Assembly: GCA_032718865.1 (NCBI GenBank)
Contig: JALUTQ010000004.1
Span: 806,001 to 870,000 of the forward strand
Source: Tilletia caries
Taxonomy: Eukaryota > Basidiomycota > Exobasidiomycetes > Tilletiales > Tilletiaceae
Direction: 5' to 3'
Length of the DNA: 64,000 nt
Made by a program: the position numbers and the translations under genes. The notes beneath the pieces are model-generated. The model was not told the origin of the DNA, searched no databases, and saw only the letters and a program-made list of their open reading frames with translations. Every line of letters begins with the position of its first letter. The stretch's first letter is position 1. This document shows positions 43,770-62,700 of the stretch, in pieces.

Positions 43770-46228
43770 GATGTGTACCCGGAGAACTCTTGCAAAATGT
43801 AGCAGGAGCAAGTGATGGAGGACGTCGAGAACGACCTTGCTGATCAGGGATCTATGAATAGGGGATGGAGGACGTAACGATCTTCTCGTTGGGACCTGAG
43901 ACAAGTTCTCTCCCCTCGGCAAAGGCTGGGAAACTAAAGTAATAGGGGGTTTCGTCAGTGCGGTGAGCATGCGTGCTCGAACATTCTGGCTCATTTCGCT
44001 GCTCGAAACTTTGATCGAACATCCGGCGTTTCGGTGATTCCTCAATGAGCGATGTGCCAGAATGTTCGTGAGCCAAAACGCGCTTCGAGGCCGCGTTTTT
44101 GGTCCATGTACATTCTGGCACACCTCATTTCAATTCATTCTCCTTCTTATTTTCTTGACACTCGGTGAAGGGTCGCGCACGGGGTCTTCATTTGGAGCGG
44201 TCAAAACTGCACATTTCAATGACCAAAATGAAGAACATGTATGAATGCACACCTCTGACGAAACCCCTTATTGATTTTTGCTGCATTTCAAGCCTGTACT
44301 GTATACAGACTAGTGCAATGGCCGAAGCCAAAGGGGTGCAGCTCCCAAACGCCGATCACGTGTGATCGGCGGCATTTTTCCGAAAAGAAAAGGCAAAAAG
44401 GGGGAAAGAAAGCGAAAAAAGAAAGAGAAAAGAAAATGTGGAGGAAAAGGAAATAAGGAAAAGGAAAAAGAAAAAGAGAATATGTAACCCATATTAGTGG
44501 AGGGTATGAGTGGGACGGACTACTGCACACACAGCTCTAATAAGACACAGCAAGTAGAATGGAAATAAAAACTACCGCGTGCGGAGCGCGCAACCTTTCA
44601 GCATCTGCCATCATGGAGCTCGTCCGACCTTACCAGAGCAGCTACTTGAGCAACAATTCCCTTTTATTCTTTGCTTCTATTCTTTGCTACGCGCAGGATC
44701 TTAGCAGCAGCTGGACAAGGCAATGACAAGCGCTTGGGTGCTGACGCTTCTGGTCTTCTGTTCCGAGCAGAAACAGCTGACCTTTTCCTCACTTCTTTTG
44801 CATCCCCCTCGCTGATGATCCCGGTCTACCCTGCTGCTTCCCCTTCCTCTTCTTTCTTCTGCCCTTTCTCCGCTATCCAGGACACCGATGCAGACCGCAA
44901 CATCAACCAGGCGGCTGCGCATCTGCTCTCTCTCCCCGGTCCCCACTCCCCGCACACCCGTCGACCGTCGTGACTCGTGCTTTGCTTCGCACCTCGCACC
45001 GAGTCTTGGCCAACCCTTCCTCCCTCGGCGATGCTGCTACGATCTGCGCGCTGCGCGCATCCTATCACGGCTCTGGATACCTTACGCTTCTGTGCTCTGT
45101 CGTTTCTTTTTCTCAATTACATTGTAATTTTTTGATTCTGAACTTCTGGACTTCCTTCTGGTCATTTTCTCTTCCTCTTCCTGCTTGCTTTCTCCTATTA
45201 CTCCACTCAGCGCCCAGCGGGTAATCGGTATCATTGAATCAGATCAATTGGTAATCAATTGATAGACATAATGTAGCCCGGTGGATGTATACAGAAGGAG
45301 AGGGAGCGGTGACGGTGAGAAATCCAAGAGTGTCGCCGACTCGGGGCCAAGCTGTGCAGCGCAGACGAGAGTCGAGGATTCGAGGTGAGGCGCGGCGGTG
45401 AGGCGCGGCCAAGCCGGAGGAACGCGACGGATGGTAGATATTTTTGACAGGGCAGCCGGCAGGCAGGCAAGGTCAAAGACCATATGGCGAGCCAGGGCGA
45501 GACGCGCAGGGAGGACGAACGGAAACACGAAAGCGGACGACGGACACCGAATACGGGACGAGAGCCAGAGCCGAGATCGCGAGGAGGGGAAACTGTTTAC
45601 TTCACAATAGAAAAAAGAGTCTGAAACGAAACGAAGGAAACGTCAGAGCTCAAAGCACAGTAGATGGAGACAGGATTGAGGTTGAGTGCTCACCATTTTA
45701 CAACAACAACAACAAGAACACCAATGGGAACCACAACGCAAGAACCACAACGAACGTCGAACGCGGAAACAACACCACAGCAACGGCAACAAGATGGCGG
45801 CCTCGGCAAGCAGCAGCAGCTCCGTGGCAACTAGCAGTTGACTGGCTGGGGCCTGAGGGGCTGGGGCGGACTCTTGAACCATGGTGTGGGTGTGATGAAA
45901 GCCTGAATCACAAAGGCAAAAACAACAGCGTCAGTAATGCACGAGCTGTGACAAGCACAGGAGAACAACTGAAGGGGAAGGGGACGAGACGTGCGTACGA
46001 GGGAGTGCTTGGGCATGAGAATAGCCAGAAGGAAGTCAACTGGCGTGCCGCAGAGAGACGAAATGGCGCCGACCTGTGGCGGCTGGCGCCGATCAGGTGT
46101 GAGGACTGTGGAGTGCCTGGGCCCTGAGGCGGAGAGGAAGAAAGAGAGAAAAGGATCAGACTGAAGCACGCACACGGGGACGGACGGACACTGTGTTGTA
46201 TGACTCACCAGACAAAGAGAAGATGTGC
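43770..46228. other. Gene-poor stretch, probably transposon flank
   Basis: No gene is supported. It contains the inverted repeat above, a purine-rich A/G tract near 44380-44480, pyrimidine-rich sequence at 44640-45200 and a CAA-rich patch near 45705. The half next to the Crypton recombinase (45.4-46.2 kb, minus strand) shows possible splice sites and small frames but nothing recognisable. It may be the 3' part of the Crypton element. Confidence 0.4.
43974..44072. repeat. Imperfect inverted repeat around CATTCTGG
   Basis: GTGCTCGAACATTCTGGCTCA at about 43974-43994 is mirrored by TGTGCCAGAATGTTCGTGAGC at about 44049-44070, and a third CATTCTGGCACA occurs near 44110. It could be a hairpin or a remnant of a small transposon. 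No target duplication was found. Confidence 0.5.
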
Positions 46229-48445
46229 TCATGAGCTGAGCTGCTTCCGGAACCAGTCCAGAGAATGAGCGCCCATCTTCCGCTGCAATGCTGCAATGCG
46301 CATCTCCACGGATTGTCCTTGAGTGTCCTGGATGGCTTTGACAATAACCATACGGCGCAAAAATGCTCTACGAGCAGCAGAAGCAGGACCACCACACCAC
46401 TTCGTCCCGTGCTCCTTCTCCAAGCCTTCCAAAGAGGGACCGCCGTTGAAACCAACCTTCCACTCCTCCCACACCTGAGCAACCGTGCGGACTGAAGGAG
46501 AAAGCCCGTAGGAAAGAGAGGGAGCTGCCTCCAGCGCCAAGGGGGGTGAGGACGACGTCGTGTGAGGGATTGACCGAGCTTCTGCGGGCGAGTTCAGCGC
46601 AGTTGCCGGCGTAAGGAACAAAGCACTCGTGCCGCTCGTGCCGCCCTCGGTGGTGGCAGATGAGGCACCAGCATTGTCTGCAGCTGCCGATGATGGTAGA
46701 GATGATAAATCGGCGAACTTGATGCGCATCACGGCAGCCGTGTGCCGCTGCAGCTCATGCATCAACACCTCATCTCGGCGTCGCTGAAGCTCCGTAGATA
46801 CCGCCGAGGCCCGCTGCATGTCCTGGACGTATTGCAGCGTAGACTTTTGCTGCTCCCCCAGCGCGACAAGCTGCTCGTGGATCTGCGGCATGACTTGCTT
46901 GAGGGCGAGCTCCATCGGATGATCAACTTGCTCGAGGTGGGACCTCTGCAGTACTGTCCATGCAGAAAACTGCTCGGACTTGAAGATGACATGTCGGAGC
47001 ACGGGATGAGCAGGCTGGATGTCTTGAAGAATGAAGATGTCTTGAAGCAGCACGCGACGGAGAAACCGCACAAGTTCCAGGAACTTGTCTGCACCGCCCG
47101 TGGCACTGATGGTGTCCTCATCAAGACTTGCTTGCCACACCTCTACTTGAGGAAAGATCATCTTGAGGAGGTCTTCCGAAGGATCCGGACCGTCTCGTCG
47201 TAGAAAGTAGGTTCCTCCGTCGGGAGAAAACCCTGCCAGTGCGCGCAGTGCCCGAACAGGCAGATGAGTCAAGTAGGATTGCTCCATTGCACCTTTCGAC
47301 TGTTTCCAGCCTCCAAGTCGTTCAATATCGCTTGAAGCAACGCCAGCTAGCTCGGCCTCGCGTGCTCCTGACCCGCGCGCTGCATGGGTGACCTTCTTGC
47401 ATCCGCGCAGTCCTAGATCGTGGAATGACTTGAGTATAGGGTTCCTGTGTGCATCGTAGGAAAGCACGGTCGTTGCATCGTCTTGGCCTCGAAGGAGACG
47501 GGTCTTGTACCAGGACTTGTTGTTCGTGAGGTCGGGAAACGGCTCGCCAATAATTTCCCAGCGCTGGAAGAGGTATAAGGCCAGCGCAAAGAGGGGATCA
47601 ACCACAGGATCCTTGTGTCGAAGGGCGCCTGAGTACTCGACGCGTCCGGTCCGATTCGTCTTGCTCTCATCGACCTTCACCACCAGGAATACGGCCGGAC
47701 TGAGGCCTTCTTGAAGCCGCCCGAGTTCTAGGTCTGACAGCGCCAATTTTCGCAGATTGATCCCGCGCATGAGAGTTTGATGTCCGAGTAGCTGAGCAAC
47801 CAGGGACCGAGTACTGACGAGGCTGCCATCCATGAGAAAGTGGCGGGCCATCTTGAGGTAGAACTCGTGGTTGTATCCATCGTCTGCAGTACCGCGTTTG
47901 TCTTTGAAGTTGGCAGCGTTTCGAGCGGCGGTCTCGAGTCTGAAATTGTTGAGCAAAGATTTGACTGCCAAAGTTCGTGGATGAGGATGCGCGTTGACCT
48001 TCTCGTCGTGCTGTTCTTGCCACAAATCGATGACCGCGCTCGCGTGAGAATCGACCAGACTGAATCCGACTACTTGTTGATCGGCGGGAACACCAGTTTT
48101 ACGAGGACGTTTGCTGATTCGGCCAACATGCCTCAACTGAAGATAGGCGTGGAGCTTGGTGCCTGTCACAGTTTCCGGCACTCGCTCCGTCGGATATCGC
48201 TCTTTGCAGAACTCCACGAACTCGCGCTTCTTGCTGCCCCATGTTTGCTTGGTGCTCTCCGCACGGTTGTCCCGGCCACGCTGACGAGTCGCTGCTTCCG
48301 CCTGCTCGTCTTCTTCTGTTACGGTGAGCTGTGAAGGAGGAAAAGTAACTGTACTCGCTGCAACAGCGCCGGAAGCCGCTGCCGCGCTCGAGGTAGCCAC
48401 GACAGTCGAAGCAACGCTTTTCGCCGCGCGTTTTCTCTGTGCCAT
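46229..48445 (-). CDS. Crypton-type tyrosine recombinase with GCR1_C-like C-terminus
   Basis: An intronless 738-residue frame from MAQRKRAAKSV. The catalytic residues of tyrosine recombinases are all visible: Arg227 in HQTLMRGINLRKL, His354 and Arg357 in THAARGSGAREAEL, Trp380 in ERLGGWKQSK, and the nucleophile Tyr391 in QSYLTHLP. The THAxRGSGARxAELAG...YLTxLP arrangement is the one seen in fungal Cryptons and in Ndc10. The C-terminus (VAQVWEEWKVGFNGGPSLEG and WCGGPASAARRAFLRR) matches the GCR1_C DNA-binding domain found at the end of fungal Crypton proteins. The frame is open upstream for 46 codons, but that part comes from the Harbinger terminus, so the Met at 48445 is preferred. It appears intact and would cut and paste a circular intermediate. 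Confidence 0.85.
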   Translation of the reverse strand: MAQRKRAAKSVASTVVATSSAAAASGAVAASTVTFPPSQLTVTEEDEQAEAATRQRGRDNRAESTKQTWGSKKREFVEFCKERYPTERVPETVTGTKLHAYLQLRHVGRISKRPRKTGVPADQQVVGFSLVDSHASAVIDLWQEQHDEKVNAHPHPRTLAVKSLLNNFRLETAARNAANFKDKRGTADDGYNHEFYLKMARHFLMDGSLVSTRSLVAQLLGHQTLMRGINLRKLALSDLELGRLQEGLSPAVFLVVKVDESKTNRTGRVEYSGALRHKDPVVDPLFALALYLFQRWEIIGEPFPDLTNNKSWYKTRLLRGQDDATTVLSYDAHRNPILKSFHDLGLRGCKKVTHAARGSGAREAELAGVASSDIERLGGWKQSKGAMEQSYLTHLPVRALRALAGFSPDGGTYFLRRDGPDPSEDLLKMIFPQVEVWQASLDEDTISATGGADKFLELVRFLRRVLLQDIFILQDIQPAHPVLRHVIFKSEQFSAWTVLQRSHLEQVDHPMELALKQVMPQIHEQLVALGEQQKSTLQYVQDMQRASAVSTELQRRRDEVLMHELQRHTAAVMRIKFADLSSLPSSAAADNAGASSATTEGGTSGTSALFLTPATALNSPAEARSIPHTTSSSPPLALEAAPSLSYGLSPSVRTVAQVWEEWKVGFNGGPSLEGLEKEHGTKWCGGPASAARRAFLRRMVIVKAIQDTQGQSVEMRIAALQRKMGAHSLDWFRKQLSS

Positions 48446-48863
48446 CGGATCGAAATGGGGCAAGATAGATGGATAGGAGATGGTCAGCGCTGAAGCACTG
48501 AGGCGGTGATCAGTTGCGAGCGCGCTCACCTTGAAAAATGAGCGCGCGCTCTGTTTTTTTTTTGGGCCGACATGAAAGCGCACGCATGTTCAGTTCCGCG
48601 TTTTCAGAGCCGGGGGCCCAAAAATTTCAGAGCGCTCTCACTCAGTTCTGAGCGCGGCGCTGGGCCGACCTATTTCGATCGGCCCACCTCGAGCGCGCTC
48701 TCCGCGCTCGCTCTTGCGTTACAAAGTCATTACAAATCACACTGTAACGAAAAAAAGTTTTTTCCCTCAGCCAGGCGTAATACCAGTGTCCTGACTCCTG
48801 CCCTGCATAGTGCATACTCCCTTCGTGCATCGCTCTCCTTCCGTCCTAGGCCAATAACGCAAG

Positions 48864-50466
48864 ATGTCTCCAATCTCGATTCCTTCAACTCCGGTTGCAG
48901 CCAGACCTGCAGCGGCTGTGGGCTCCTCTACTCCCGCTGCGACCCCTCCCACGCAAACCAATCCGGGTACTCCTGCTCCACAGCAGAAAGGCAAAAAGAA
49001 ACAGGACACCCTTCCAGATGATCCCGCGAAAGTCAAGAAGGAGCTCTGCGTTTGGAATGATAAGGATGACGAGTGTCTCTTGGCTATCCTAGAGGATGCA
49101 AAGGCTGCTAACGAGATGTCTGAGAACGGTTTTAAAGTGAGTAAAGTGAGCTGGCTAGTGTCTACTGCCTACCCCTTCTACGACTGGCGGCTATATATCA
49201 ATTCTGACACATCCTCCCTCCTTCCGCTGCATAACGACTTCGTATTGACTACAGGTGCAGACCTACAACAAAGCGGCTGCGTCACTAGAATTGATTAGGA
49301 TCACAGGTGCAATTAAAACATCTGCGCGCGTACAGGACCACTTTAAGAACGTGAGTTTTTGTCTCTATTCCCTTGTCAGGTGCCCGTTTGTCCATAAGAC
49401 GCACTACTATTGAGTCTGATCTTTGAGCTTTCCCTTTGTAGATGAAAGCCAACTGGAAGGAGGTCAAATTCCTTGCCAGCCAATCTGGCTTCGGGTGGGA
49501 CAATGACAGTAGCTTGGTCACGGCTCCCGCCGACGTGTGGGCTGCCCTAATCAAGGTGAGATACTGAAATCAAAGGAACATCTAGACTCTGAGTGTCAGA
49601 ACTGCGGCTGCAGGCTGTTTGGGAGACAGAGCGGGTGCAGTCGAGCAAACTTGTCTAACATCACTACTCTACGTTGAATTGCAGGCTAAACCCGCATACA
49701 AGAAATGGATGCGCACTTCGCTTTGGTATTACGACAGGATGGATGATCTCGTCGCGGAGTGCACCGCAACGGGCGACTACGTCTTCGATCCCACCGCCCC
49801 TCCGAAACCAGCAGCGTCTTCCACGTCGAAGGGAAATCCCATAACGATTGACGACGATAGCGACGGCGAGGAGGCTGCTGGGAGTGATGCTGGCACGCCT
49901 CTGGATGGAGAGTGGTCTGAATCTGAAACAGAGTCCGTGAGTAGTGAACGTACAATAAGAATCTGAGACACTTCGAACCCGAGCTCTATTGGGCTTAGGC
50001 GGACAGGCGGCAGTGCTTGTCACAGCTCAGGCTAGTGCAGCTTAGCGTTTCTGGGACCTGGTGCTAATTGAATGTTGTTTGTTGAATACAGAAGGAGAAG
50101 AAACGTGGCGCTGCTGGGGCTTCTCAGGGAAGCCGCAAGAAACAGAAGCCCTCGGCTTTGGCTGAAATCACCAGCATCGGCAAGTCCGTCGGTGCCTTGG
50201 TGAGGCTGGAGAAGTCTAGGATGGAGATGGACAAGCAGGAGATGGCCTCGGATCGAAGTGCTGCGGACGCTACGACTATTTCCCTGTCCGCTCTCATGCA
50301 GCGTGATAAGGACACTTTCTCAGGGTCAGAACTCGGTATCATCGCCTTCGAAGTCAGCAAGCTTCCGGCTCTGCTCGCCACCTGGGGGGCGCTTGCCAAC
50401 CTTGACGAAGCACGGGTTGCATTCCTGCGAGAGATCATTGGTAACGCAGCCTCTACATCTAAATAA
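48864..50466 (+). CDS. Harbinger Myb/SANT-like DNA-binding protein
   Basis: Five exons (48864-49136, 49255-49350, 49442-49555, 49685-49936, 50092-50466) give 369 residues. A Myb/SANT-like domain occupies about residues 65-175: KELCVWNDKDDECLLAILED, FKVQTYNKAAASLELIR, SARVQDHFKNMKANWKEVKF, FGWDNDSSLVTAPADVWAAL, KKWMRTSLWYYDRM. This is the standard layout of the Harbinger-associated protein (three helices with Trp residues, then the W-DVWxALI-x-W segment). It binds element ends and brings the transposase to the nucleus. The rest is an acidic Ser-rich linker and a helical C-terminus. No lesion is visible. Confidence 0.85.
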
Positions 50467-50637
50467 TTGTAGCCTCCCCCCCCCCTCTTTCCACCCCTCT
50501 CTCTTCCAAAAACAATCAATATGCACTCCCTTCTCTTTCTTGAACATACTACACACAATGTGCCAGACGTCAGACAGCAAGTCTGGGGAGAGGCAAGGGT
50601 AGTTGTGAGACATGTCAGATGGTCACTTCGATTGCAA

Positions 50638-52037
50638 TTAAGATCCATTGTAAGCGGTCCACATGAGATTCGCCCTCATTGTACGACCAGCCTCTGCCCC
50701 TTTGTCGTCCTTGAAGATGGGTGGTTTCTGAGTGCTCGGAGGACTGAGGCTTGCATGTCTCTCCAGCCAGATGTCGATCTCACGGTCGGACATGATGTCC
50801 TCAGGGTCCACAAGGCGGATGAAGTTGTGGACTACTGCCAGGGCCGGGAAGAGAGCAACCTGAACCCGCAGGGGGGGAAGTCTGACCCGAGGGCTAAGAC
50901 CTTGAACCGTTCCTTGATGACCCCAAAGATCCTCTCGATCACGCTGCGCAGACCCGCATGCCGCCTATTGTAAAGTTCCTGGGCAGTACGAGGTCTGAGG
51001 CAGATTGAGTCGTTGTCAGATCAAACACAAGGGAATAGAGCGTCCTGGAATTAAACTCCTCACCTGGCATTACCAGTCGCCCATTCTTTCAAGTGGTACC
51101 TAGTACCTCGGTAAGGCACCAGCACCGTCTTGCTTAGTCCGAACCCCGCGTCTCCCAGATACGTCCGACCCTGAGGCATCTTGACAGATGTTTCCATTGC
51201 CTTTTTCAGCACGTAGCCATCCCCGGCACTCCCCTCCCAGCCTGCAACCACAAACTGGAAAAGCAGGTCAAACGAGCAGCCAGCCATGACATTGAAAGAC
51301 AAGTTGCCTTTCCTGTCTCTGAAACGGGCTCGTTCGGAAGCGGGAGGACGAGCGGGAAGGTGCGTCCCGTCGAGGGCACCGACTACGTCCTTGAATGCAC
51401 TTTTGACTTTAGGATCGTTCCGAATACGTTCGGGCATGGGGGAATCCGCGAGCGGCATCTTCACGTACACGCTGTACATAGCCGGGTCCACGAGGCACTG
51501 GATTGTACGACGAATAGCCCTATAGTGCACGGTATTGGGTGAAGCAATTTTTGGGTCAAATAGAGTGTCCCTTAGTCACAATTTAAGTCTATAAGATACG
51601 CACAGTGACACAGTTGCCATCGCATGCCCAAAGGTATGGGACAGTAGCCGGCATGTTGCACCCGAGCGACAGGCGTACAGGAAAATAGCCAGGTGCTGAT
51701 GGGCTGACAACTTTCTCGTGTCTCCAAACCGAGTACGAGCGCGAAGTTCCTTAACAAGGGCGAGAAATGCCCCTCGATTGATGCCGAGAACGTCGCGACA
51801 GACTACTCCGTCCTTCAGAAGCCTGCGAACGAAGAGAATCCCTCTACTGCTCGAACTGCGCTTGCGCTTACAGTAGTATCGTCGCACGTAGAAAGAGAGT
51901 GCGCTTGTGGCGGCGGCGAGGACGATCAACAAGCGGCGGCGACGTGCTGCTGCTGTCTGCTGTCGGCGCGCCGGAGACGATGCACTGGAACCAGAAAAAA
52001 TCGCATTGAAGATTGAGTTAGCAATGCTGACGCGCAC
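50638..52037 (-). CDS. PIF/Harbinger DDE transposase, probable frameshift
   Basis: The N-terminal part (52037-51600) holds the helix-turn-helix region: CRDVLGINRGAFLALVKELR and SAHQHLAIFLYACRSGATCR. The core follows an intron near 51520-51590: DVVGALDGTHLPARPP (first Asp), VVAGWEGSAGDGYVL (second Asp), TYLGDAGFGLSKTVLVPYRG. After a second intron (about 50996-51065) come ELYNRRHAGLRSVIERIFGV, with the catalytic Glu, and KERFKVLALG. The frame then needs one extra base in a run of seven C (about 50871-50877) to continue into VQVALFPALAVVHNFIRL and the stop at 50638. That is either a real one-base deletion or a homopolymer sequencing error. Otherwise the gene looks fresh. It opens convergent to the Myb-like gene. 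Confidence 0.82.
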
Positions 52038-52456
52038 ACGCGCATAGGCACCCTATAGGCAGGGCCCTTGCTGGTAGCCGATAAGCCTGTTGTGTGTGTA
52101 GTATGTGCTTACCTGCTTGAGACCATGGCTTGCACACCGTATACATATGCATAGACTAGTGCTGAAACAAATGTAGCAAACAAAGAGCCAGGCAGGAACC
52201 GAGCGCAGAAGATGATCATTGAGAAATTGAAACGACCGTGATCAAAATTGAATGAAAGTGGAGCGTCGGAAAAAAAACATAGGCAAGACGCACTACCCAG
52301 CGCGAGTGTGTTCAGCTGTGGGCGCGCGCTCTGAGAAGCAGATTTTCAGAGCCGAGCGCGAGGGGCCTCGCGCTCTGTGTTTGAGCGCCCTTTTTGAGCG
52401 CGCGCCCGCAACTGATCACCGCCTGAAGGGCGACTACCACCAGCAGCCAGCAGTCG

Positions 52457-52495
52457 ATGATCATGCTCAGAGCGGCAGAGCCGCCTGATGATCAT
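52457..52495 (-). ncRNA. Stem-loop 3' of Fanzor; candidate part of its guide (omega) RNA
   Basis: A 39-nt hairpin: ATGATCA / TCAG / GCGGC on one arm pairs with GCCGC / CTGA / TGATCAT on the other, with a 3-nt loop (AGA), a 3-nt bulge and a 1-nt bulge. It lies about 190 bases past the Fanzor stop codon and 30 bases outside the Harbinger end. Fanzor and TnpB guide RNAs are made from the 3' end of the nuclease gene and its downstream flank, so the position fits. No direct evidence of transcription or of a guide junction. Confidence 0.4.
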
Positions 52496-52682
52496 TGGAT
52501 TTCTGTGGTAAAATGCGCTCTCATCTTGCCAGCACCCAGGATGTGTGTGTCGGATGAAAACTAAAATGCGATCCTTTCAAGGGCCATTTACCCATGGAAT
52601 GTTGGTGATTCTCCACATTTTATTTGAGTGTGTCGGTCAGACACAGCCAAAACATCAGACCCAAATCCTTGAGATGTCGCTG

Positions 52683-54107
52683 TCACTGGTTGAGAAAATC
52701 ATATTTCCAGTGGAGGAAAATGTTTTTCGCGCCATTGACGTCTCGATCCGAGACTGTGAGACATCCGGGGCAGCGGTGGATTTCGCTGCCTCCAAGTCTG
52801 TGATTGACCGTGCCGCACGTTGAGCAGACCTTGGATGTCCAGTCCTCCACCACCTCGACGACCTCCATAGCTTCATTTAATCGGCTTCTGAAGCGACCGT
52901 GCGCCCACGTCATCATGGCTCTGACTGTCTTTCGCCCGATCCGCCTTTGACCTCGCCGAGACATCTGGTGCGCGTTGAATGTTGGCAGCAGCACAGTGTC
53001 GAAATTTTGCTTGAGGTAGCCACGCAGCTTCCAATGGAGCTCGTCGACCAGATGCCGGATTCTTGCACGCAGTCGATTTGCGGCGCGGCGCATTCGGTAA
53101 CGCTTTTTTGCTGTAGCTTGGGTTGATCGCGAGATCAAATCATCCAAGTGCGTACCGAGGCGGAAAAGACGCTTGTGTTCTCCATCGCCACATTTTGCCG
53201 CCATTCCCCGCAAAGGGTCGTAAATCGTGGCAAATGTCCGAACGCCGGGGTCAATGGCGCACATTTCTGGGCCACGTGCTGCAGGAACCCGCATCTTCTC
53301 TTCCCCCATGTCCTTCTGCCAAAGCAGGAACCATGACCCGTTCTCCTGCTTGATGCATGCCCCATCATGCTCCAGCGATGGAACGTCGATCCCCGTCTGA
53401 ATCTTGGTCTGGCGCTGACCTGGACCCAGACCGAAATTTGGGATCTTGAGGCATCCTCCGTCCCAGTCACGTTTCCGAATTCGGAAGGAGGAGAAGAGCG
53501 CCCGCTTTTTCCGGAACTTCAGCTCGAAGTTCGGAATTTTGCCGTCCCGAACGTCCGCCAAGCCATTCCGAAGCGCTGTATGGGCCTCAAGGCACGCCTG
53601 CTCCCTGATGCTGTATGGCACCGGAGTCACCCATGACAGGTTCATGAGGGGAAGGCCATCCTCTGTAACCGAATGTTCGCGGACGTCCGTTAAAGAGGCG
53701 TTTGGGTGAGCCTTGAGGTACGCCACCGCCCGGTTGTACGTCCACCTGAATATTCCAGCCGTTTTTCGAAGTGCCTCCTTTTGCTGTGTATTCGGCCGAA
53801 GCCGGGTGCGATAAGTCTTCAATCGCGAATTGTCTGGGCGCTCTCCAGGCCTGGTCCTCCGAGACGGCGGTGGTGGAGGCACAGCGTCGAGGCGCTGCCG
53901 GAGTGTAGCGCTCAGCTGCGTGAGCATTCCGCCGATATCTTCATCCGGCACGACTGGATGCGGCAGGTGGGCGTATTTTGGTAGAAACCAAGTATCGATG
54001 GGCGCATTATGCCACTCCGCCGCCTGTTGTGTGCCTTCTACGCTAGGCCATAGCACCGATTCTGGTGCTACTGACCCAATCCAGGGCTCAGGCGGAGGGT
54101 CGGCCAT
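52683..54107 (-). CDS. Fanzor: eukaryotic TnpB-like RNA-guided endonuclease
   Basis: An intact, intronless 474-residue frame with a strong Kozak context (CACCATGG). The layout is TnpB-like: an N-terminal extension (1-95, Pro-rich), then the start of the TnpB fold, YRTRLRPNTQQKEALRKTAG and FRWTYNRAVAYL. RuvC-I lies at CAIDPGVRTFATI (Asp286). A helical segment precedes the RuvC-II strand FDTVLLPTFNAHQM. A C4 zinc ribbon (TSKVC428-STC431 ... C446-PGC449) and RuvC-III SDRDVNGAKNI (Asp456) follow. The order D-x(125-275)-[TS][TS]xx-C4-x-RD is the published Fanzor/TnpB signature; here 137 residues separate D286 from T424. The canonical RuvC-II Glu is absent (Pro375) and Glu421 (VVEDWTSK) is a candidate replacement. 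Such proteins cut DNA guided by an RNA from their own 3' end. Confidence 0.9.
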   Translation of the reverse strand: MADPPPEPWIGSVAPESVLWPSVEGTQQAAEWHNAPIDTWFLPKYAHLPHPVVPDEDIGGMLTQLSATLRQRLDAVPPPPPSRRTRPGERPDNSRLKTYRTRLRPNTQQKEALRKTAGIFRWTYNRAVAYLKAHPNASLTDVREHSVTEDGLPLMNLSWVTPVPYSIREQACLEAHTALRNGLADVRDGKIPNFELKFRKKRALFSSFRIRKRDWDGGCLKIPNFGLGPGQRQTKIQTGIDVPSLEHDGACIKQENGSWFLLWQKDMGEEKMRVPAARGPEMCAIDPGVRTFATIYDPLRGMAAKCGDGEHKRLFRLGTHLDDLISRSTQATAKKRYRMRRAANRLRARIRHLVDELHWKLRGYLKQNFDTVLLPTFNAHQMSRRGQRRIGRKTVRAMMTWAHGRFRSRLNEAMEVVEVVEDWTSKVCSTCGTVNHRLGGSEIHRCPGCLTVSDRDVNGAKNIFLHWKYDFLNQ

Positions 54108-54633
54108 GGTGATCTGTATATAATAGATAAGAGAAAAAACAGGAGCGGTGCTGGTCAGTCTCTTGATCTAACGATGATGACGCAAAAAAAAAAAGAAAGA
54201 AAATGAAAAGAAAAGAAAAGAATGAAAAAAGGAGCGGTGCTGGTCACGTGGTTGGACTCTGCTAGTCACGTGGTTGGTCTTTTAATCTAATAATGATAAG
54301 GAGAAAAGAAGAAAAAAAAAAGATAAAAGAAACGAAAAAAACGAAAAAGAAAGAATGGCGACGAACAAAAACTACAGAACGAAAAACGGCAGAAAACAAT
54401 ACACAAAAATCTAGAAAAACAAATGAAAAACGAAAAGCATGAAAAACACTCACCTTGAACTTTCAGCGAGGGACGGATGTTAACGCCGAAGAGTATGTTC
54501 GACAGACAGTCACGTGGCAAAAGCAAACTATGAGTCGACAAGAGGGCGAAGAGCCGAAGAGGGGGGGGGGGGAAAGAGAGTCGTTCCTGGGGGTGGGGGG
54601 GTGGCTTGTTATATAGCTTCGTGGCTGCGTGGG
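54108..54633. other. A-rich intergenic region upstream of Fanzor
   Basis: No gene. It contains two GGAGCGGTGCTGGTCA words (54144 and 54231), a repeated TCACGTGGTTGG (about 54245 and 54267), and long A/G tracts. It probably includes the Fanzor promoter and one border of its element, which I could not define. Confidence 0.5.
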
Positions 54634-55186
54634 GAGAAATTTCACAGGATGACCCCCATTTTTATCTAAGTTGACAGAATGACCCTCATGTACAGAATGA
54701 CCCCCCGATTGGAACCACCACTTTCGGATGTCCAGTAAAAGCTCCGCCACGGCGATCAGAGGCTCGAACACGTCGAAACTACCTATGGCAGCGCGGCTAC
54801 CCACGCTGAAGCTCCTCCCGCTTTTTATTGACAATTCGAGAGACGCACCGTCGAGCAATGGTCGCGCACAAAAGGGCAGAACGAAGCGAACAAAGAGCGC
54901 CTCTCGGCCGAGAGAATTTTGCCTTGGAATTGACCCTTCTCTCAGCATCTACTGCTCATCTTTGGATGATTCGATTTCAATACCTTCAACGTTGTTGGCT
55001 TTGTTGTAGGCGCGCAAAGCTTTGTGCCAAACGTCAGCTGTGTTCGCCTCGTTCTGTGGTCATGGTGTGGATCAGTAGAGAAAGGTTTTTCTCTGCTTTC
55101 TGGGAGGGGGTCATCCTGTGAAGAGATAAGGTGAGGGTCATTCTGTCAACTTAGATATAAATGGGGGTCATCCTGTGAAATTTCTC
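54634..55186. mobile_element. Mutator-like (MULE) MITE, 553 bp
   Basis: Long terminal inverted repeats of about 56 bp with one mismatch (starting GAGAAATTTCACAGGATGAC) are flanked by a perfect 9-bp target duplication CTGCGTGGG at 54625-54633 and 55187-55195. A 9-bp duplication with long repeats is the Mutator signature. Inside, AGAATGACCC and AGGATGACCC words recur. No transposase is encoded. Confidence 0.9.
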
Positions 55187-55493
55187 CTGCGTGGGAAGGG
55201 CAGCCATGACGTAATGCACACAGGTCACCAACGCACAGACATCGAATACCATGGAAGCCCGTGGAAGCGAGTTTCATCCCCCCCACGGCCCCTTTCCTCT
55301 CTCTGGTGATGGTGATCTCAGACGCTGGATGAGCTCAAGCCAGCTGAGGATCAGCTCGAGCGACCCGAAAGCCACGAGCCACTCACTCTCTCACTCACTC
55401 GCCCGCGCTCACCTCTTCTCCCGCCGCCCCAGTCCATCGCATTATTCATCCAATCACGCTCCCCATCACCTCGACACCCAGCACACACACAAC

Positions 55494-55952
55494 ATGACCG
55501 CCGACGCCGCCACCACCTCCACCTCGCCCGCCATGGCTGAGCAGCACCAGACACAAGCGCAGGACTCATCCTAGGTCGACCGCGCACGCAAGTACACCGC
55601 CCAGGCCGGTCTCGAGAACCAGGTCACCTGTCGGCCAGTTCGGCGCCGGCTGGTTCGATGCGGTGTATGCGATCGAGGCTACTTGCCATGCGCCTTCGTG
55701 GGAGGGCTGCTACGGTCAGATCAAGGAGGTCCTCAAGCCCGGCGGAGTCGTGAGTCTCTCTCTTCTGTGCACGCGCGCGATGCACTCCCAGTACTGATCA
55801 CTGCTCTGCTCCCTTTTCCACGCGCGCGCCAGTTCGGCCTGTATGATTGGTGTATGACGGACGAGTGGGACGCCTCCAACCCGGAACACAAGCGCATCGC
55901 GCACGGTATCGAGATCGGCGACGGCATCCCCGAGATGCGCCGATTCGAATAG
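55494..55952 (+). pseudogene. ERG6: ERG6 (sterol 24-C-methyltransferase) relic
   Basis: The start [20 protein letters not shown] runs into a TAG and, in the same frame, straight into [17 protein letters not shown]. The whole segment between (tetrahydrofolate-like N-terminus and the SAM-binding motif LDVGCGVGGP) is missing. After another break come [20 protein letters not shown] and LKPGGV, then a proper intron (about 55750-55831) and WCMTDEWDASNPEHKRIAHG and EIGDGIPEMRRFE, followed by TAG. These are highly conserved Erg6 blocks in the right order. The C-terminal half is absent or unrecognisable (a faint DPPAFPW near 56150). ERG6 makes ergosterol by methylating zymosterol; this copy cannot work, so a functional copy should exist elsewhere. 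Confidence 0.85.
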
Positions 55953-57025
55953 GAAGGGAGAGACCCGACAGGTGTGCCAGATTGGTTGGACGGACAATTG
56001 TGCCCCTTTCCTCCGCCCGACTCCTCGCGGCTGGGCGTGGATTTGCGCGCATGTATGCACAGAAAGGAGCTGACCATGTTTCTCGCTTGCCTCCCCAGTT
56101 GCTCGCAAACCTGCATATACGCATATCCCTTTGCATCTACAGACCCTCCGGCATTCCCCTGGTCCCACAAGGGCTGGTTCGAGACCTTCGATCACTCTTC
56201 CATCCGCCGCGGTTACCAAGGTGCGCACTTCCCAGCCTCACAGCATGCTCGGCTACATACCTGATTCTGACGGAAACAACACCAATCTCCCCTGGATCGG
56301 AATCGACATCGGAAACGTCCGCGGGCGAGCAAAGAGCGCGGAATGTCCTCCAACATGGCGTGGAGTGGATGAAGGACCCCATGCATTTCCTCTTCCTGAC
56401 TTTGGAAGCGGCCCTCGGTCCTGACACCCTTTCCTCACCTTCTTTAGTGTGGGAGAACCTGCTTCGTATGGAACGACAATGGGCGGGCAAGAATCTGGGA
56501 TTCAGTCTCGACAAGTAGGCAAATCTCCTTCATCCTTCTCCGAGTGCCCTCATTCCATTCCCTACCGGATCTAAGTATCTCTTTCTCCCCTTCACAAAGA
56601 AAACCACGGCCTAACCTTCCAATTGGAGCCTGCAGCCTGACGTGGACTTACTCCTGTATTTCTATCTTTTCTCTTGATCACACACAAAGAACCTCTTTCA
56701 CTGTCCCACTCGAATTCCTTGCTACAGTAGTAGATTTGGATGTGCTTCATCATCATCTTTTTGGGAGATTGTGGGCGAAAGGCTCAGCGCTGAGAAAGGA
56801 AAGCGGAAAGCCTGCCCGTACGTACGTCGACATCTCAAGGTGCATGCTCTGAGCTCTCCAAGCTCACAGGTTCAGTCTGCGAGTATCTCAAGTCCTCATC
56901 ATTCACCCTTCGAAGGACAGAGGTTGGGTCAGGATGGGGATATCCCTTCAGACACGGGACTTTGGACCTCGGGGGGTGACATAGTACATTCCCTTTTGTA
57001 CAATTGCGGCGCAGTCCTTTGGAAA
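55953..57025. other. Intergenic, with possible debris
   Basis: No gene is supported. An open frame near 56350-56517 ends LRMERQWAGKNLGFSLDK but has no recognisable domain; together with the DPPAFPW trace at about 56150 it may be more decayed coding sequence. Confidence 0.4.
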
Positions 57026-57854
57026 TCATCGTCGCCCTCGCTGTGCCTGTTGGTACCAAGGTGCCCTACTCGTGATGGACCGAAGCATGGCTGAGGCCCC
57101 ATGCAGTCGATATTCCTAAGCAGAGGGTTACACAATCGGCACAAAGTGTCAGCGTTCAATAACCACCCTGTCTGTCGCTCACGAGTGGGAATTGGGCATG
57201 GGGCTCACCTCGAACGCCTTGCCGAGAGGTTTCCGCAGCGCTGCTACTGCTAGCAGTCCCAGCACCGTCAGCACGTAGAGCGATACTATCGTCCGATCCT
57301 TGCCGCCGTCTCGTTCTGTTCGAAAAAATGAAGATCACATTCAAATCAGCCCGGCCCAGCGACCACGTCTCTCTCAAACGAGAGCGCGCGCGCGCGTGTA
57401 TGCGTATGTGTATGTCCCAAATCAGGGTACACTCACGGAAGCACTTCGCCCAAATGTCACCCTCCCACCCCGTCCCCGTATCCCCATCACTAGCCATAAT
57501 CTTGGCCCCCTTACAACCAGGCGTACTACCGAGGGTATCCAGACAGAACTGCTTCGTGCACGTCGCGCATGGCTTGGACGGTTCTGCGGGCGCAAAGAGG
57601 GGTACGAGGGTGGTGTTGGTGCCGAAGCAGGTGCATTTGCACAGGAAGGCAGAGTCGCGCTTTGTTAATGCTTGGAGAAGGTTGGGTTGGTGTGGGTCGG
57701 CATCGGAAGAGGCTGGTATGAGGGACGCGCTCTCTTGTGGTATTCTTTGCACGTTGGCTGCTGGGATCCCGGGCAGGATGAGCGCGAGCATGAGCAGGGC
57801 CAGGGCCAGTGCGTGGCCGATGGACGGGAGGTGGGAAGGTATTCTTGTGCGCAT
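57026..57854 (-). CDS. Small Cys-rich single-pass membrane protein
   Basis: Three exons (57854-57437, 57315-57209, 57115-57026) give 204 residues. A signal peptide (IGHALALALLMLALILPGIPAA) is followed by a luminal or extracellular Cys cluster: FLCKCTCFG, PCATCTKQFC, PGCKGAK, WAKCF. One membrane segment follows (TIVSLYVLTVLGLLAVAAL) and then a short basic tail. It is therefore a type I membrane protein with a disulphide-rich head; the family is not one I can name and function is unknown. The last exon is a choice: with intron 2 spliced the tail reads EYRLHGASAMLRSITSRAPW, and if intron 2 is retained the protein stops at 57179 after VSPMPNSHS. Intron 1 contains a (CG)n run. Confidence 0.65.
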
Positions 57855-58098
57855 CGTTGTTTCTGCGGATCCACACAGGAGCAGGGTCAGTCGTGCGCGC
57901 GCATGAGCTGGAGCGTACGCTGCGACCTCGCCGCTCACCTGCTATTTACTTATGTATCTCTCACTGACGTTTCACTTCTCGCCGACCTCGTTGCTCTCGA
58001 CCTCATCGTCGCTCATTCTGAAATTCCTCAGTCAAGTCAGTGGACATGGTTACGTAATCTCTCTCTGAGATCAAATGAAGTGCATTGACTGGAGACAG

Positions 58099-59466
58099 TT
58101 ACGTCGGTGCGCCCGCCGTGCTCTTGTTGGTCCGCCTCGCCAGCGCCCGCTCCCTCGCCTTCTGCCGTGCTTCCTCTCGCTCCGTCCGCTCCTGGTCGCC
58201 CGCCCCATCTTTGACACCCATCAGCTTGATCTTCGTCTTTTCTCGCTCCAGCTCGTCTTCCGCCTCGCGTTTCCGTTGGATCTCGACCAGCTGCGCCTCC
58301 AGGTGGAACGTTTGTCGGGCTCGAGAGGCTGCGGAGTTGAACGATTGTGCTGTCGAGAGATTTCGGGAGGTCGATGATGTTGAGGCTGATCCTCTGCCGG
58401 GTGGGAGAAGTCGGGATGAAGGACTGTTGGCGTCGAGCTTCTTTTTCTTGTTGATGTGGTTGAGACCTTTGGACAACAGAGATCGGTTGTCTACGAGCTG
58501 ATTGTCGTCGTTGATCTCGACAGCGAGACCAGAGGCTCGGGCAGCCTCAACCTTGCGAGCCAGAACAGCATTTTCACTCTCCTCTTGCACATCTGCAGCG
58601 GGCAGCGTTTCATCGACCTTTTTGCCTGTAACTGCCGCGTTGGCGGCCTGGACCGCTGCGTCGTGCGCTGCGCTCTGCTCGCTGAGCAAGTTGCTGTAGA
58701 ATGCTTGTACACCTTTGCTCTTCGTCTTGTCTTTCCGCTTCGCCTCCTCTTCTTCCTCCTTCTTGATCGCCTCCATCTGTTCCCGATACGCGTCTGTGAT
58801 AAAGGCCTCCTTGTCTGCGAACTCGTCGCCCTCCGCATCCCGCTCGCGCTGGATCTTCTTTGCCTCCGCTCGTTCGTGGTCGCGTTTCCGTTGGGCAGAA
58901 GCTTCGAGGAAAGCACCGATGTACTTGGGTGCCGGACGACCTGTCTCGTCCAACATACCTGCGGCCTGCTCTGCTTCTTTCTGCTTCTGCTTGGCGGAGG
59001 CCGCTGCGGTCTTCATGGCATCGTAGACGTTGTCGTACTCGAAGATGGAGGCATCATGGGCCAGCGCTTGATCGGCCGCAAGTCTTGACGCTCTTGAGAT
59101 TGGTCCAGGCGCCTTCTTTGCTGAGTCTGTTCGCGCCGTGCTGGACGATGCCGGCTTCGAAGACAGTACCGCCTTCTTGCCCGTGCCGTCCTCCTCATTG
59201 TCCTCTTCGTCGTCGTCGTCGCCGCCGAAGACAGAGAGAGGCTTCTCCTTTCCTTGACGCGAGCTGCCTGCAGCCGGAGGACGCGAGCCGCCTGTGGGCT
59301 TCTGCAGTTGTCCGAACGCGCCGCCTTGCTCATCTTCGTTGTCGTCGTCGCCGCCGAAGCTGCGGAGCGCGCTGCCCAGGGAACTTCCGCTCGCGCCCGC
59401 ACCAATTCCCGTGCCGCCGCCGCCAGGTTTACGATTGGGATTGAGAGCGAAGGAGAAGCCGGCCAT
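58099..59466 (-). CDS. Nuclear speckle splicing regulatory protein 1-like (DUF2040)
   Basis: An intronless 455-residue frame from MAGFSFALNPNRKPGGGG. The conserved NSRP1/CCDC55 block begins DQALAHDASIFEYDNVYDAM and continues KYIGAFLEASAQRKRDHERA, then KKIQRERDAEGDEFADKEAF and ITDAYREQMEAIKKEEEEEA, a strongly charged coiled coil. The C-terminus is Lys/Arg/Glu-rich and helical (RKREAEDELEREKTKIK). In animals NSRP1 sits in nuclear speckles and influences alternative splice-site choice. An in-frame upstream Met at 59661 would add 65 residues of poor composition that lie in the shared promoter with the M13 peptidase gene, so it was not chosen. Confidence 0.83.
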   Translation of the reverse strand: MAGFSFALNPNRKPGGGGTGIGAGASGSSLGSALRSFGGDDDNEDEQGGAFGQLQKPTGGSRPPAAGSSRQGKEKPLSVFGGDDDDEEDNEEDGTGKKAVLSSKPASSSTARTDSAKKAPGPISRASRLAADQALAHDASIFEYDNVYDAMKTAAASAKQKQKEAEQAAGMLDETGRPAPKYIGAFLEASAQRKRDHERAEAKKIQRERDAEGDEFADKEAFITDAYREQMEAIKKEEEEEAKRKDKTKSKGVQAFYSNLLSEQSAAHDAAVQAANAAVTGKKVDETLPAADVQEESENAVLARKVEAARASGLAVEINDDNQLVDNRSLLSKGLNHINKKKKLDANSPSSRLLPPGRGSASTSSTSRNLSTAQSFNSAASRARQTFHLEAQLVEIQRKREAEDELEREKTKIKLMGVKDGAGDQERTEREEARQKARERALARRTNKSTAGAPT

Positions 59467-59708
59467 CGTTAATCGTTCGGGAATAGGTTGTGGACGTTCG
59501 CACCGGTGACGACATGGTTCCCAGCATGGGGTCGAAGTCGAGGAGGAGGAGGAGGAAGATGCGGACGACGACCACCATCTCGACACCGAGATCTTCGCAG
59601 TTCCTCTCTTTCTCTCTCTCCCTGCGCCCGTCGCTGCACAGCTCACTCCACCCCTTCGCACCTCTCCGCCAGCAGAGTGCCGCGCCTGTCTCTTGCGCGT
59701 AGAACACG

Positions 59709-62700
59709 ATGGCGAACAACCAGGACCGGTCTGTGCGCATCGCCAACGAGGACGATGATGCCCACGAGCGCACTCCGCTCGTCGCAGGTGAGGGTGCCAG
59801 CGCGCCCCAGTCTCGCACCCGCCGCTTCAAGAACTCAATCAGCTCCGTCTTCGAGCCCCTCGCACACCCCAACGAGCTCCGTCCTCTCGAGAAGTTCCTT
59901 CTCATCCTCGCACTCCTTCTCCTCCTCCTCGCCGCCCTCTTCATCGGTCTCTTTGCAGGTGTGAAGAGCCGTCTCGATCACTCCATCCCGCCCGGTCGCG
60001 CTCCCGGCTCGCCTGCCCCTCCCAGCCATCCCGGAGAGGGAACGCCGTGGAAGACGACCTGCGACACCGAGACTTGCGTACTTGCGGCTGCCGAGATTCT
60101 CAAGGGAGTAGACACCTCCCTCGACCCTTGCGATGACTTCTACGAGTTCACCACCGCGGGCTGGCGGAAGAATCACCCCATTCCCTCTGACGCCGGTCTT
60201 TTCGGTATCGGCCAGTGGCTCACCAAGGAGAACACCAAGGTCATGGTCGGTCTCCTCGAAGGCAGCTCTTCCACAGCACAGAACAACAACACCATCGCTT
60301 TCGGAAGTGACTCAGACGACGAGAATGTCGACAAGGAGAACCTTGCCAAGCTTCGCGACTTCTACGACTCGTGCATGGACCAGGACGCCCAGGACAAGGC
60401 TGGCGACGAGCCCATTCTCAAGCTGGTCGACGAGTTCCGGAGCCGACTGACCGTGCGCGACCCTACTAAGAAGGACATCGTCTCCTCCGACGAAGATGAA
60501 GCTCCTACTCCGCTCTTTGTTGCTCAATCCCATGAGCCTGTCCACTTCAGTCCCGTGCCTCCCAACCATCCTCCGCCGAAGGCACCTCAAGGTCACCCGC
60601 CCAAGGAAGACCCTCGCCCTTACCCGCCTCAGGGCAAACGCCAACAGAAGCTTACCCAAGCCATTGTCTGGGCTCACTCTCGTGGCCTCGGCGTCTTCTT
60701 CGGAGCTCGCATCGATGGCGACATAGGCAAAGACCCCCAGCTCGCAACGCCCCTCATCGATCCTGGCGGAATTGGCTTCCCCGACAAGGTATACTACGAA
60801 GACAAGGACGAGATCGAGTTCTACAGCTCTGTCATTGATCAGGCCTTTGTCAGTCTCGCCAAGGCACTCCATGCCCGCGAGACTGCCAAGAAGAAGCAAG
60901 GCAGCTCGGACAAGAAGCTCGAGGAGGCGATCAAGCTTGCCCGTCAGCTTGCCAAGGAAGTCATCAAGTTCGAGACTGAGCTGGCCGAAGCTCAGCCGGA
61001 TGGGATCGAGCTCTCCGACCCGATGGGAACCTACAACCCTGCCTCCCTCGCTGAATTCTCATACATGCTCACTTCCATTGACGTGCCGCTCTACTTCACC
61101 GGCCTCAGCGTCCGTCAGCCTGACCGCATCATCGTCGCCAACACCAAGTATGTCCGCCGCGTGGACTCTCTCTTGAGCCGAACCCGCGACGAGGTCCTCG
61201 AGGCGTACATCGTCTGGACCCTTTTGCGCACCTACGGCCGCGGTCTTGGTCCCAAGGCGTCCCTTCGCCAGCCGTTCAACCGCCTCGACAAGCGCGCCAA
61301 GGGCATCGAGGACGATGCGAAGGAGAACCGCGTCGGTTTCTGCCTGGACGAGATCAACCAGGCTCTCGGATACTCCGCCGGTCGATACTTCGTTCAGGAG
61401 ACGTTCTCTGCCCGTGCCAAGGCGCGTGCGGAGGAGATCATCGAGGCTCTCCGGGCCTCCTTCCTCGAGCGTCTTCCCGAGCTCTCCTGGCTCGACCCTA
61501 AGACTCGCCGTCGTGCCGAGGTCAAGGCCCGCGCTGTGAAGGTCAAGGTCGGCTACCCTGAATACCCTAACACGACGGACCCGAACAACATCCGGGCGTT
61601 CTACGCTGACTTGAAGGTGCAGGGTAAAGGACACTTCTTTGAGAATTTGGTGGCGAGCTCAATCCGGTTGACTCAACGTCCTTGGAGGAGGCTCGGCCTC
61701 CAGATGGACCCGCGACGCTGGGATATGTTCCCCTCCGAGGTCAATGCTGTGAGTTTGTCCCTTTTCTTGAGCCTTGTGCATGCAGGCGAGCTTTTCGCTG
61801 ATTGAAGCTCTCTCCTATTTCCCAGTACTACTCGCCACCTGAAAACGAGAGTGAGTTCTGGCTCTGAAGATATAAGGGAACGACCTGAATGCTGACACTT
61901 ATGTGCTGTTGAACGGTGGCGCAGTTGTCTTCCCTGCTGGCATATTGCAGCCTTTGTACTTCCACGTCGACTGGCCGGGCTACCTTCAGTTCGGTGAGCT
62001 GGGCTCGCGCTATTTCCGGGTATCTGAATGTCATGGGCTCACACTGTGATCCATTTTCTTCACAGGTGCCTTCGGAACCACCGCTGGACACGAGCTTTCG
62101 CACGCCTTTGACCCTGCCGGCCGCGAATACGACGAGAACGGCTACCTGCGCGACTGGTGGACGAACGACACCGCCGTCGAGTTCAACCGTCGGCGCGATT
62201 GTATCATTGCGCAGTACGGCAACTACTCGATGCCGCTCGAGAACGGCAAGACGCTCCCGCTGAACCCGGGTCTGACGATAGGCGAGGATGTCGCCGACGG
62301 CGGTGGACTGAGTCAGAGCTACTATGCGTGGAAGAGCACGCTGAAGGACTCGAGTGGGATTGGTCTGATGAAGTTGCCCGGGCTTGAGTACACTCCGGAG
62401 CAGCTGTTCTACATTGTGAGTTTACCCCCCTCTCCCTTAGGTGCTGTTGGCATGGTCAGGTCATGAATGACTCAAAAATGCGCTCTTCCGTTCTTCAAGG
62501 CATACGGGCTTGCTTGGGCTCGTAACATCCGACCGCAAGAGATGATCCGTCGGATCCGAACCGACCCTCACTCTCCGACCAAGTGGCGGGTGAACGGTGC
62601 GCTGCAGAATTCCCCCGGTGAGTTCACTCACAAAACATCCCCAAAAATGTTGGTAATGACATTGCTGACCTCTATGGGAACTTGTCGCACATGCGTTCTT

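What the first reader, a model, noticed from the sequence alone, without database searches (positions are those of the whole stretch)
52683..54107. Intact Fanzor (eukaryotic RNA-guided nuclease) in a basidiomycete
Seen: a single uninterrupted 474-codon frame with RuvC-I Asp286, a TSxx-C4 zinc ribbon (428/431/446/449) and RuvC-III RDVNGAKN (Asp456), in the exact order of the Fanzor/TnpB signature, with a good Kozak start. Known: Fanzors are eukaryotic relatives of TnpB, and several are proven RNA-guided DNA endonucleases. Inference: this copy is recent and may be active, because no stop, frameshift or intron decay is visible over 1.4 kb in a region where almost every neighbour transposon gene is broken.
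Basis: partly seen in the sequence, partly recalled or inferred. Interest (0 to 1): 0.9.

Follow-up and report, generated by a model that had tools for sequence, protein, structure and literature searches.

The report
Fanzor transposon that hoards host genes
The reading frame is a genuine Fanzor, a fungal relative of CRISPR nucleases, and it sits in a damaged copy of a multi-copy mobile element that ends in an almost unchanging structured segment, likely a guide RNA, and has picked up pieces of the fungus's own genes, which gives a rare look at how such a nuclease travels.

Summary
Window 52683-54107(-) is an intact 474-codon Fanzor frame with the published fingerprint (DPG, relocated Glu421, C4 zinc finger, Asp456); its predicted fold is closest to mimivirus Fanzor2. 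The genome, very likely Tilletia caries TC1_MSG, holds about 20 copies (5 uninterrupted), dN/dS 0.19-0.59. The frame is one gene of a larger element. The right end is fixed and lies in a 102-nt terminal segment that varies 8-fold less than fourfold sites and resembles a guide-RNA scaffold. The left end is identical in the four loci read intact. It carries an SPT5-like gene: 6 of 7 SPT5 loci lie within 10 kb upstream of a Fanzor copy, divergently. Between SPT5 and Fanzor sit stitched fragments of host housekeeping genes. The window copy is not pristine: an 8.2-kb insertion separates the nuclease from its tail, a 0.57-kb insertion sits in the leader, and left end and SPT5 are missing. Best mechanism: a Helitron-like (rolling-circle), non-autonomous, gene-capturing element carrying a Fanzor2-type nuclease. 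The Helitron assignment is unproven.

The parts
52683..54107 (-). Fanzor (Fanzor2-type) ORF, 474 aa; D286, Ealt E421, C4 zinc finger 428/431/446/449, D456
44280..44385 (-). 106-nt structured 3' terminal segment (predicted guide-RNA scaffold), ending at the element's right end ...TGCAGC
   Evidence: tail matched at 20 places (two rows one locus); pairwise difference 0.0064 over its last 102 nt vs 0.053 at fourfold sites, 0/5000 resamples; fold z -2.41, 5 of 200 shuffles fold as well
44386..44485 (-). pyrimidine-rich linker that directly follows the ORF in most sister copies
44260..44279 (-). host flank right of the right end: where a guide would start in a Fanzor/TnpB RNA
   Evidence: position from the right end; guide role inferred from PMC10432273 (passages) and PMC10711439 (Results parts 1-2)
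44486..52673 (.). 8.19-kb nested insertion between ORF and tail, 4-nt ACAT on both sides
46229..48583 (-). 784-aa ORF with NDC10_II and GCR1_C domains (Crypton-type recombinase by resemblance, recalled), inside the nested insertion
51060..52037 (-). broken DDE_Tnp_4 (Harbinger-type, name recalled) transposase; Pfam hit in the 51060-51530 piece only
54108..54628 (-). 5' leader region shared with sister copies
54629..55199 (.). 0.57-kb inverted-repeat (MITE-like) insertion, shared with L012, absent from most other copies read
55380..55572 (+). captured QCR6-like (UCR_hinge) 5' region and first-exon fragment, 99% to C22:536180-536368
55573..55940 (+). captured ERG6-like methyltransferase internal fragment, probable intron kept, 91% to two C19 loci (ERG6 name recalled; Pfam gives methyltransferase)
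55941..56272 (+). captured fragment of the cytochrome c1 locus (mostly between exons), 95% to C19:587976
56271..56822 (+). fragment shared with a degenerate mosaic at C40:1875233, 84%; last piece before sequence without further matches, i.e. the present left edge of the window copy

Best explanation
A Fanzor2-type RNA-guided nuclease encoded in a non-autonomous, Helitron-like element of Tilletia caries. Full anatomy, in Fanzor sense: left end GCATCGTGCAATG...; an SPT5-like gene in divergent orientation; a zone of stitched host-gene fragments next to a QCR6-derived stretch; the Fanzor gene; a 102-nt terminal segment; right end ...GCAGC followed by G or A. SHOWN: the fingerprint, copy number, purifying selection, the two ends, absence of a target-site duplication in the copies tested, SPT5 linkage, the fragment mosaic, and extreme conservation of the terminal segment. 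INFERRED: the transcript of the terminal segment plus flanking host sequence is the guide RNA; the nuclease cuts the matching unoccupied site (allele or sister chromatid), so that repair copies the element in or keeps it; movement itself is done in trans by RepHel proteins of the genome's Helitrons, whose replication picks up host fragments. The window copy is a left-truncated, twice-interrupted member: its protein may work, but only with guide RNA made by other copies.
For: Fingerprint and fold. About 20 loci at >=82% identity, 5 uninterrupted over >=472 residues. dN/dS 0.19-0.59 in 28 of 28 pairs. Terminal segment p=0.0064 vs fourfold 0.053, linker 0.114, leader 0.081; 0/5000 resamples. 18 intact right ends read: GCAGC then G in 15, A in 3; two of them (L024, L028) are one inverted duplicate, and L022 was left out because its end is deleted. 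Left end the same in 4 loci. 6 of 7 SPT5 loci 2.4-9.8 kb upstream of a Fanzor copy, all divergent. All 7 of 7 copies whose left side I searched carry segments matching other loci. Helitron side: no abutting duplication above 3 nt at 4 of 4 copies with both edges read, two of them left-truncated; hairpin just before the 3' end; 8-nt asymmetric inverted repeat GTGCAATG, 5 nt from the left end and 34 nt from the right end; 60 Helitron_like_N matches in the genome. PMC3627910 (passages) reports Fanzor1 in Helitron2 elements with intact 3' ends, 5' truncation, internal deletions and captured sequence.
Against: None of the 60 Helitron_like_N matches lies in the window or, by coordinates, between the ends of the six SPT5-bearing copies, so the element has no RepHel of its own. 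The 8-nt inverted repeat is reached by 72 of 5000 shuffles. Left flanks end in GAT, GAA, GAA, GAG, not the T-rich target of the published Helitron2 cases. The tail search returned only copies of this element (C5:897797 has no frame beside it but the shared leader lies 9 kb away), so no autonomous Helitron with the same end is shown. IS607 elements also lack TIRs and TSDs (PMC3627910 section 13). SPT5 dN/dS between two close copies is 0.58, not strong. Foldseek TM-scores are low (0.39 to 9b0l, rmsd 14.2). No expression, RNA or cleavage data.
Confidence: 0.6

Rival explanations
1. The element is a decayed IS607-type (or other site-specific recombinase) Fanzor2 element moved by a serine recombinase in trans; the captured fragments are unrelated repair filler.
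For: Published Fanzor2 elements are IS607-type without TIRs or TSDs (PMC3627910 section 13); here no TSD above 3 nt in 4 of 4 copies and the protein is Fanzor2-type. The base after GCAGC is G or A in 18 of 18 right ends.
Against: No serine recombinase among the few ORFs scanned; I did not search the genome for one. Systematic gene capture is not a described IS607 trait (recalled). A terminal hairpin and asymmetric repeat fit Helitron2 better.
Confidence: 0.17
2. The mosaics are made by the nuclease: Fanzor breaks are repaired by copying or joining pieces of highly transcribed genes (template switching), and the element needs no Helitron.
For: Joins show 0-3 shared bases by eye; pieces of one gene keep their order with skipped parts; sources are housekeeping genes; some pieces are 99-100% identical to another locus.
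Against: Captures sit in the middle of the element, not at a predicted guide target; skipped parts may be later deletions; Helitrons capture genes without Fanzor (PMC2575219, start of abstract seen in the listing).
Confidence: 0.13
3. Dead repeat: the frame is an open relic without function and the terminal conservation reflects recent spread or gene conversion.
For: 15 of about 20 copies are interrupted or partial; the window copy is split from its tail.
Against: The tail is far more conserved than the frame and leader of the same copies, and dN/dS is below 1 in every pair.
Confidence: 0.1

Closest known systems
Acanthamoeba polyphaga mimivirus Fanzor2 (PDB 9b0l, TnpB-like protein L79)
   Different: About 18% identity; host element not compared here (PMC3627910 section 13 lists mimivirus elements among IS607-type Fanzor2 elements)
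CRe-1/2/3 Fanzor1 elements of Chlamydomonas (non-autonomous Helitron2; PMC3627910, passages read)
   Same: Fanzor in a small family with an intact 3' end, 5' truncations, internal deletions, captured sequence, asymmetric repeat and 3' hairpin
   Different: Those are Fanzor1, multi-exon, inserted after T tracts, often with 7-19 bp TSDs; here Fanzor2-type, single exon, no such TSD, SPT5-like cargo, long mosaics of host genes
Fanzor2* in cut-and-paste transposons of algae and molluscs (PMC10711439, Results parts 1-2 of 3 read)
   Same: Fanzor2-type nuclease outside IS607, DPG + Ealt fingerprint, RNA scaffold reaching the element end
   Different: Those have TIRs and TSDs; here neither was found
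Pleurotus Helitrons with captured genes (PMC4289320, passages read)
   Same: Fungal rolling-circle elements with extra genes
   [quoted passage not shown] 0 mentions of Fanzor

Membership tests
Fanzor | DPG motif in RuvC-I (PMC10711439) | tested here: met
   D286-P287-G288; 8 of 8 copies
Fanzor | Relocated RuvC-II Glu (Ealt) a few residues before the zinc finger, canonical Glu absent | tested here: met
   E421 before C428; P375 at the canonical place
Fanzor | C4 zinc finger and RuvC-III RD | tested here: met
   C428/431/446/449, R455-D456
Fanzor | TnpB/Fanzor fold | tested here: met
   model pLDDT 84.2, pTM 0.75; top hits 9b0l, 8h1j by E-value and Z, though TM-scores are 0.34-0.42
Fanzor | RNA-guided DNA cleavage | not testable with these tools
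   no biochemistry
Fanzor | Guide RNA from the element's 3' end | tested here: inconclusive
   hyperconserved folding 3' segment; no RNA data; no Rfam match in window 43000-57500
Fanzor2 | Closer to Fanzor2/TnpB than to Fanzor1 | tested here: met
   Fanzor2 9b0l first, Fanzor1 SpuFz at rank 38; no tree with Fanzor1 was built
IS607 | Serine recombinase (TnpA) | tested here: inconclusive
   none in the few ORFs scanned; genome not searched for it
Helitron2 | RepHel protein in the element (autonomous members) | tested here: not met
   60 Helitron_like_N matches, none in the window or between the ends of the six SPT5-bearing copies; the nearest to a Fanzor copy that I noticed is C23:1179301-1179838, about 9.5 kb upstream of C23:1189347. 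Only a non-autonomous reading is open
Helitron2 | Asymmetric terminal inverted repeat | tested here: inconclusive
   GTGCAATG 8 nt; 72 of 5000 shuffles
Helitron2 | Hairpin upstream of the 3' end | tested here: met
Helitron2 | No TSD for full-length copies | tested here: met
   C7 0 nt, C40 at most 1 nt by eye; left-truncated C23b 3 nt and C32 0 nt
Helitron2 | Insertion in T-rich target (e.g. TTTT) | tested here: not met
   left flanks end GAT, GAA, GAA, GAG; FoHeli targets differ too (PMC5148889 passages)

The most novel reading that the evidence does not exclude
An RNA-guided nuclease travels in a gene-capturing rolling-circle element together with its own transcription-elongation factor: the SPT5-like protein would keep the element and its non-coding guide RNA transcribed, while Fanzor breaks both spread the element to unoccupied sites and feed the capture of pieces of highly expressed host genes. 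Fanzor would then be a driver of exon shuffling in a eukaryote.
Probability: 0.15. Interest if true: 0.88.

Novelty: new variant of a known kind. Interest (0 to 1): 0.62.

Why it matters
Fanzor biology has few natural settings where nuclease, guide RNA, element ends and insertion history can all be read. Here about 20 copies in one assembly give both ends, an independent conservation test for the guide-RNA segment, and captures of host genes of graded age. If the Helitron link holds, a Fanzor2-type nuclease has joined a rolling-circle element, a combination I did not meet in the parts read of PMC3627910 and PMC10711439, and the open question of what Fanzor does for its transposon becomes testable by comparing occupied and empty sites among bunt isolates.

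Tried and rejected
Rejected: (1) left end at the variable 55.4-55.6 kb edge: the variation is captured genes; the true left end lies beyond SPT5. (2) Element inserting upstream of proteasome genes: the proteasome pieces have second copies elsewhere. (3) Capture of spliced mRNA: of three skipped stretches inside single genes, those in NDUFS1 and the Band_7 gene lie in open coding frame; the one in the proteasome beta6-like gene falls inside a probable intron without matching its borders; the ERG6-like piece keeps a probable intron. (4) My first label RPE for the main L023 piece was wrong; that piece is a Band_7 gene, RPE is a neighbouring piece. (5) First dN/dS run had three copies on the wrong strand and was discarded (corrected in 77). 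(6) Rfam: no match in 43000-57500. (7) Pseudoknot between loop GCTGCA and terminal TGCAGC: the complementarity is there, but 61 of 2000 shuffles reach it; in the second Fanzor family (C34) 247 of 2000 do, and part of the segment overlaps its stem, so only suggestive. (8) Covariation was not counted: the terminal segment is almost invariant.

Names: QCR6, ERG6, PSMB6, PSMB7 and PHB2 are recalled names for Pfam hits UCR_hinge, methyltransferase, Proteasome (two) and Band_7; the Band_7 hit is below its cut-off (21.3 vs 23.6 bits), DNA_ligase_A_M in the C35 copy is at its cut-off, and the leftmost L012 piece has no Pfam hit.

Dropped rows: L022 (right end deleted) and L015 (tail interrupted) were left out of the tail alignment and conservation test; L016, L019 and L026 gave no tail in the held stretch. 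BLAST tables were printed only above 60-150 nt.

Full report

Copies. The window lies in a 38.1-Mb genome in which the protein has 53 matches. About 20 loci belong to this family at >=82% identity; 5 of them are uninterrupted over at least 472 residues. Contig C7 is exactly as long as the largest contig of T. caries TC1_MSG (2,689,501 bp; and PMC10684912 passages); the paper gives 38.18 Mb and 46 contigs, here 38.10 Mb and 40, so the organism is very likely but not certainly that strain. Among 8 near-full-length copies, dN/dS is 0.19-0.59 in all 28 pairs. The window copy is 0.047-0.088 in dS from the other 7, so it is not a very recent insertion.

Right end and RNA segment. In most sister copies the frame is followed by about 218 bp that stop sharply at ...GCAGC, then G (15) or A (3) in 18 right ends read, then unrelated flanks. 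The tail is matched at 20 places (two rows are one locus in C33, and C5:897797 has no frame next to it). Its last 102 nt differ by only 0.64% between pairs of 15 copies, against 5.3% at fourfold-degenerate sites of the same copies, 11.4% in the linker and 8.1% in the leader; 0 of 5000 resamples of fourfold sites are as conserved. It folds better than shuffles (z -2.41; 5 of 200 fold as well). The loop GCTGCA can pair with the terminal TGCAGC, where PMC10711439 describes a pseudoknot, but this is reached by 61 of 2000 shuffles. In the window this segment is intact but lies at 44280-44385, because 8.19 kb are inserted between frame and tail, with ACAT on both sides. That insert holds an open NDC10_II gene (784 aa) and a split DDE_Tnp_4 transposase.

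Mosaic. Upstream of the shared leader the copies differ. A genome search with the window's left side shows consecutive, nearly base-to-base pieces of other loci: a QCR6-like first-exon region 99%, an ERG6-like gene 91%, the cytochrome c1 locus 95%, and a piece shared with a degenerate mosaic on C40 at 84% (domains). By eye the joins share 0-3 bases. All 7 of 7 copies whose left side I searched show such pieces: a proteasome beta7-like gene, NDUFS1 plus other loci, a Band_7 (PHB2-like) gene and RPE, a proteasome beta6-like gene and others, three pieces from C23:1107-1111 kb at 99-100%, malate synthase and an OTU gene at 99%. I read the other locus itself for QCR6, ERG6, CYT1, PSMB7, PSMB6, NDUFS1 and PHB2; for the rest, which copy is the source is not proven. 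The pieces are DNA-level: the ERG6-like piece keeps a probable intron, and the stretches skipped inside NDUFS1 and the Band_7 gene are coding.

Left end and SPT5. Following the left sides further led to SPT5-like genes. The genome has 7 such loci; 6 lie 2.4-9.8 kb upstream of a Fanzor copy, always divergent; the seventh (C30) is probably the host gene (domains). A search with the stretch beyond one of them gave a common edge, which reads GCATCGTGCAATGTATAGGAACGAG in four loci (C7, C40, C3, C35) and is truncated in C23b and C32. The C7 copy runs from 1597370 to about 1585590, 11.8 kb, with both ends. No target-site duplication above 3 nt is seen at C7, C23b, C32 or C40. SPT5 dN/dS is 0.58 between close copies and 0.23-0.24 between subfamilies. 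No SPT5 match and no left end were found in the window copy.

What moves it. Absence of TSDs, a hairpin before the 3' end, an 8-nt asymmetric inverted repeat (72 of 5000 shuffles), fixed 3' ends with left truncations and gene capture resemble the Helitron2 elements with Fanzor1 described in PMC3627910 (passages), and the genome holds 60 Helitron_like_N matches; Helitron ORFs were already reported in bunt genomes (PMC9172201 passages). Against this: no RepHel match in the window or between the ends of the six SPT5-bearing copies, no T-rich target, no non-Fanzor element with the same right-end tail. IS607 remains possible and was not searched for in the genome. I therefore say that it behaves like a non-autonomous Helitron2 and leave membership open.

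Literature. Searches of the held library for Fanzor with Tilletia and with 'gene capture' found nothing; Fanzor with Helitron gave 4 papers, of which I opened three in part; TnpB, Fanzor and Spt5 together gave one review on another subject (listing); Helitron, SPT5 and fungal gave two plant papers (listing); a mixed search on Fanzor and captured genes listed 10 of 22, of which only PMC3627910 holds Fanzor. The library holds open-licence papers only.

Noticed in passing
G000 C34:1247553-1249075, 1264432-1265956, 1270672-1272194 (L061-L063): A second, divergent Fanzor family (37-51% identity) in three copies with its own fixed right end 97 nt past the stop (...AATGTAGCC then G).
   Followed up: partly
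G000 C28:824366-825705 and 839672-840586; C4:2391126; C4:2338536; C7:1235588: Further decayed Fanzor relatives, so several families have lived in this genome.
   Followed up: no
G000, 60 matches, e.g. C5:2136047, C13:510224: Helitron RepHel N-domains are abundant, more than a dozen of them complete and without stops; the TC1_MSG genome paper's main text has no mention of Helitron.
   Followed up: no
L025:106-724 and more than 20 other places: A 620-bp high-copy repeat, up to 99% identical: a recent MITE-like burst.
   Followed up: no
G000 C19:374940 and C19:403675: Two ERG6-like copies on C19 in opposite orientation, both 91% to the captured fragment.
   Followed up: no
window 56829-56840 (+) and 52667-52678 (-): The 12-mer GACATCTCAAGG occurs on opposite strands at the present left edge of the window copy and at the nested-insertion junction; it may mark an inversion or rearrangement.
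   Followed up: no
window 57156-61805: Apparent host genes beyond the element: NSRP1_N protein 58099-59661(-) and M13 peptidase 59709-61805(+).
   Followed up: partly
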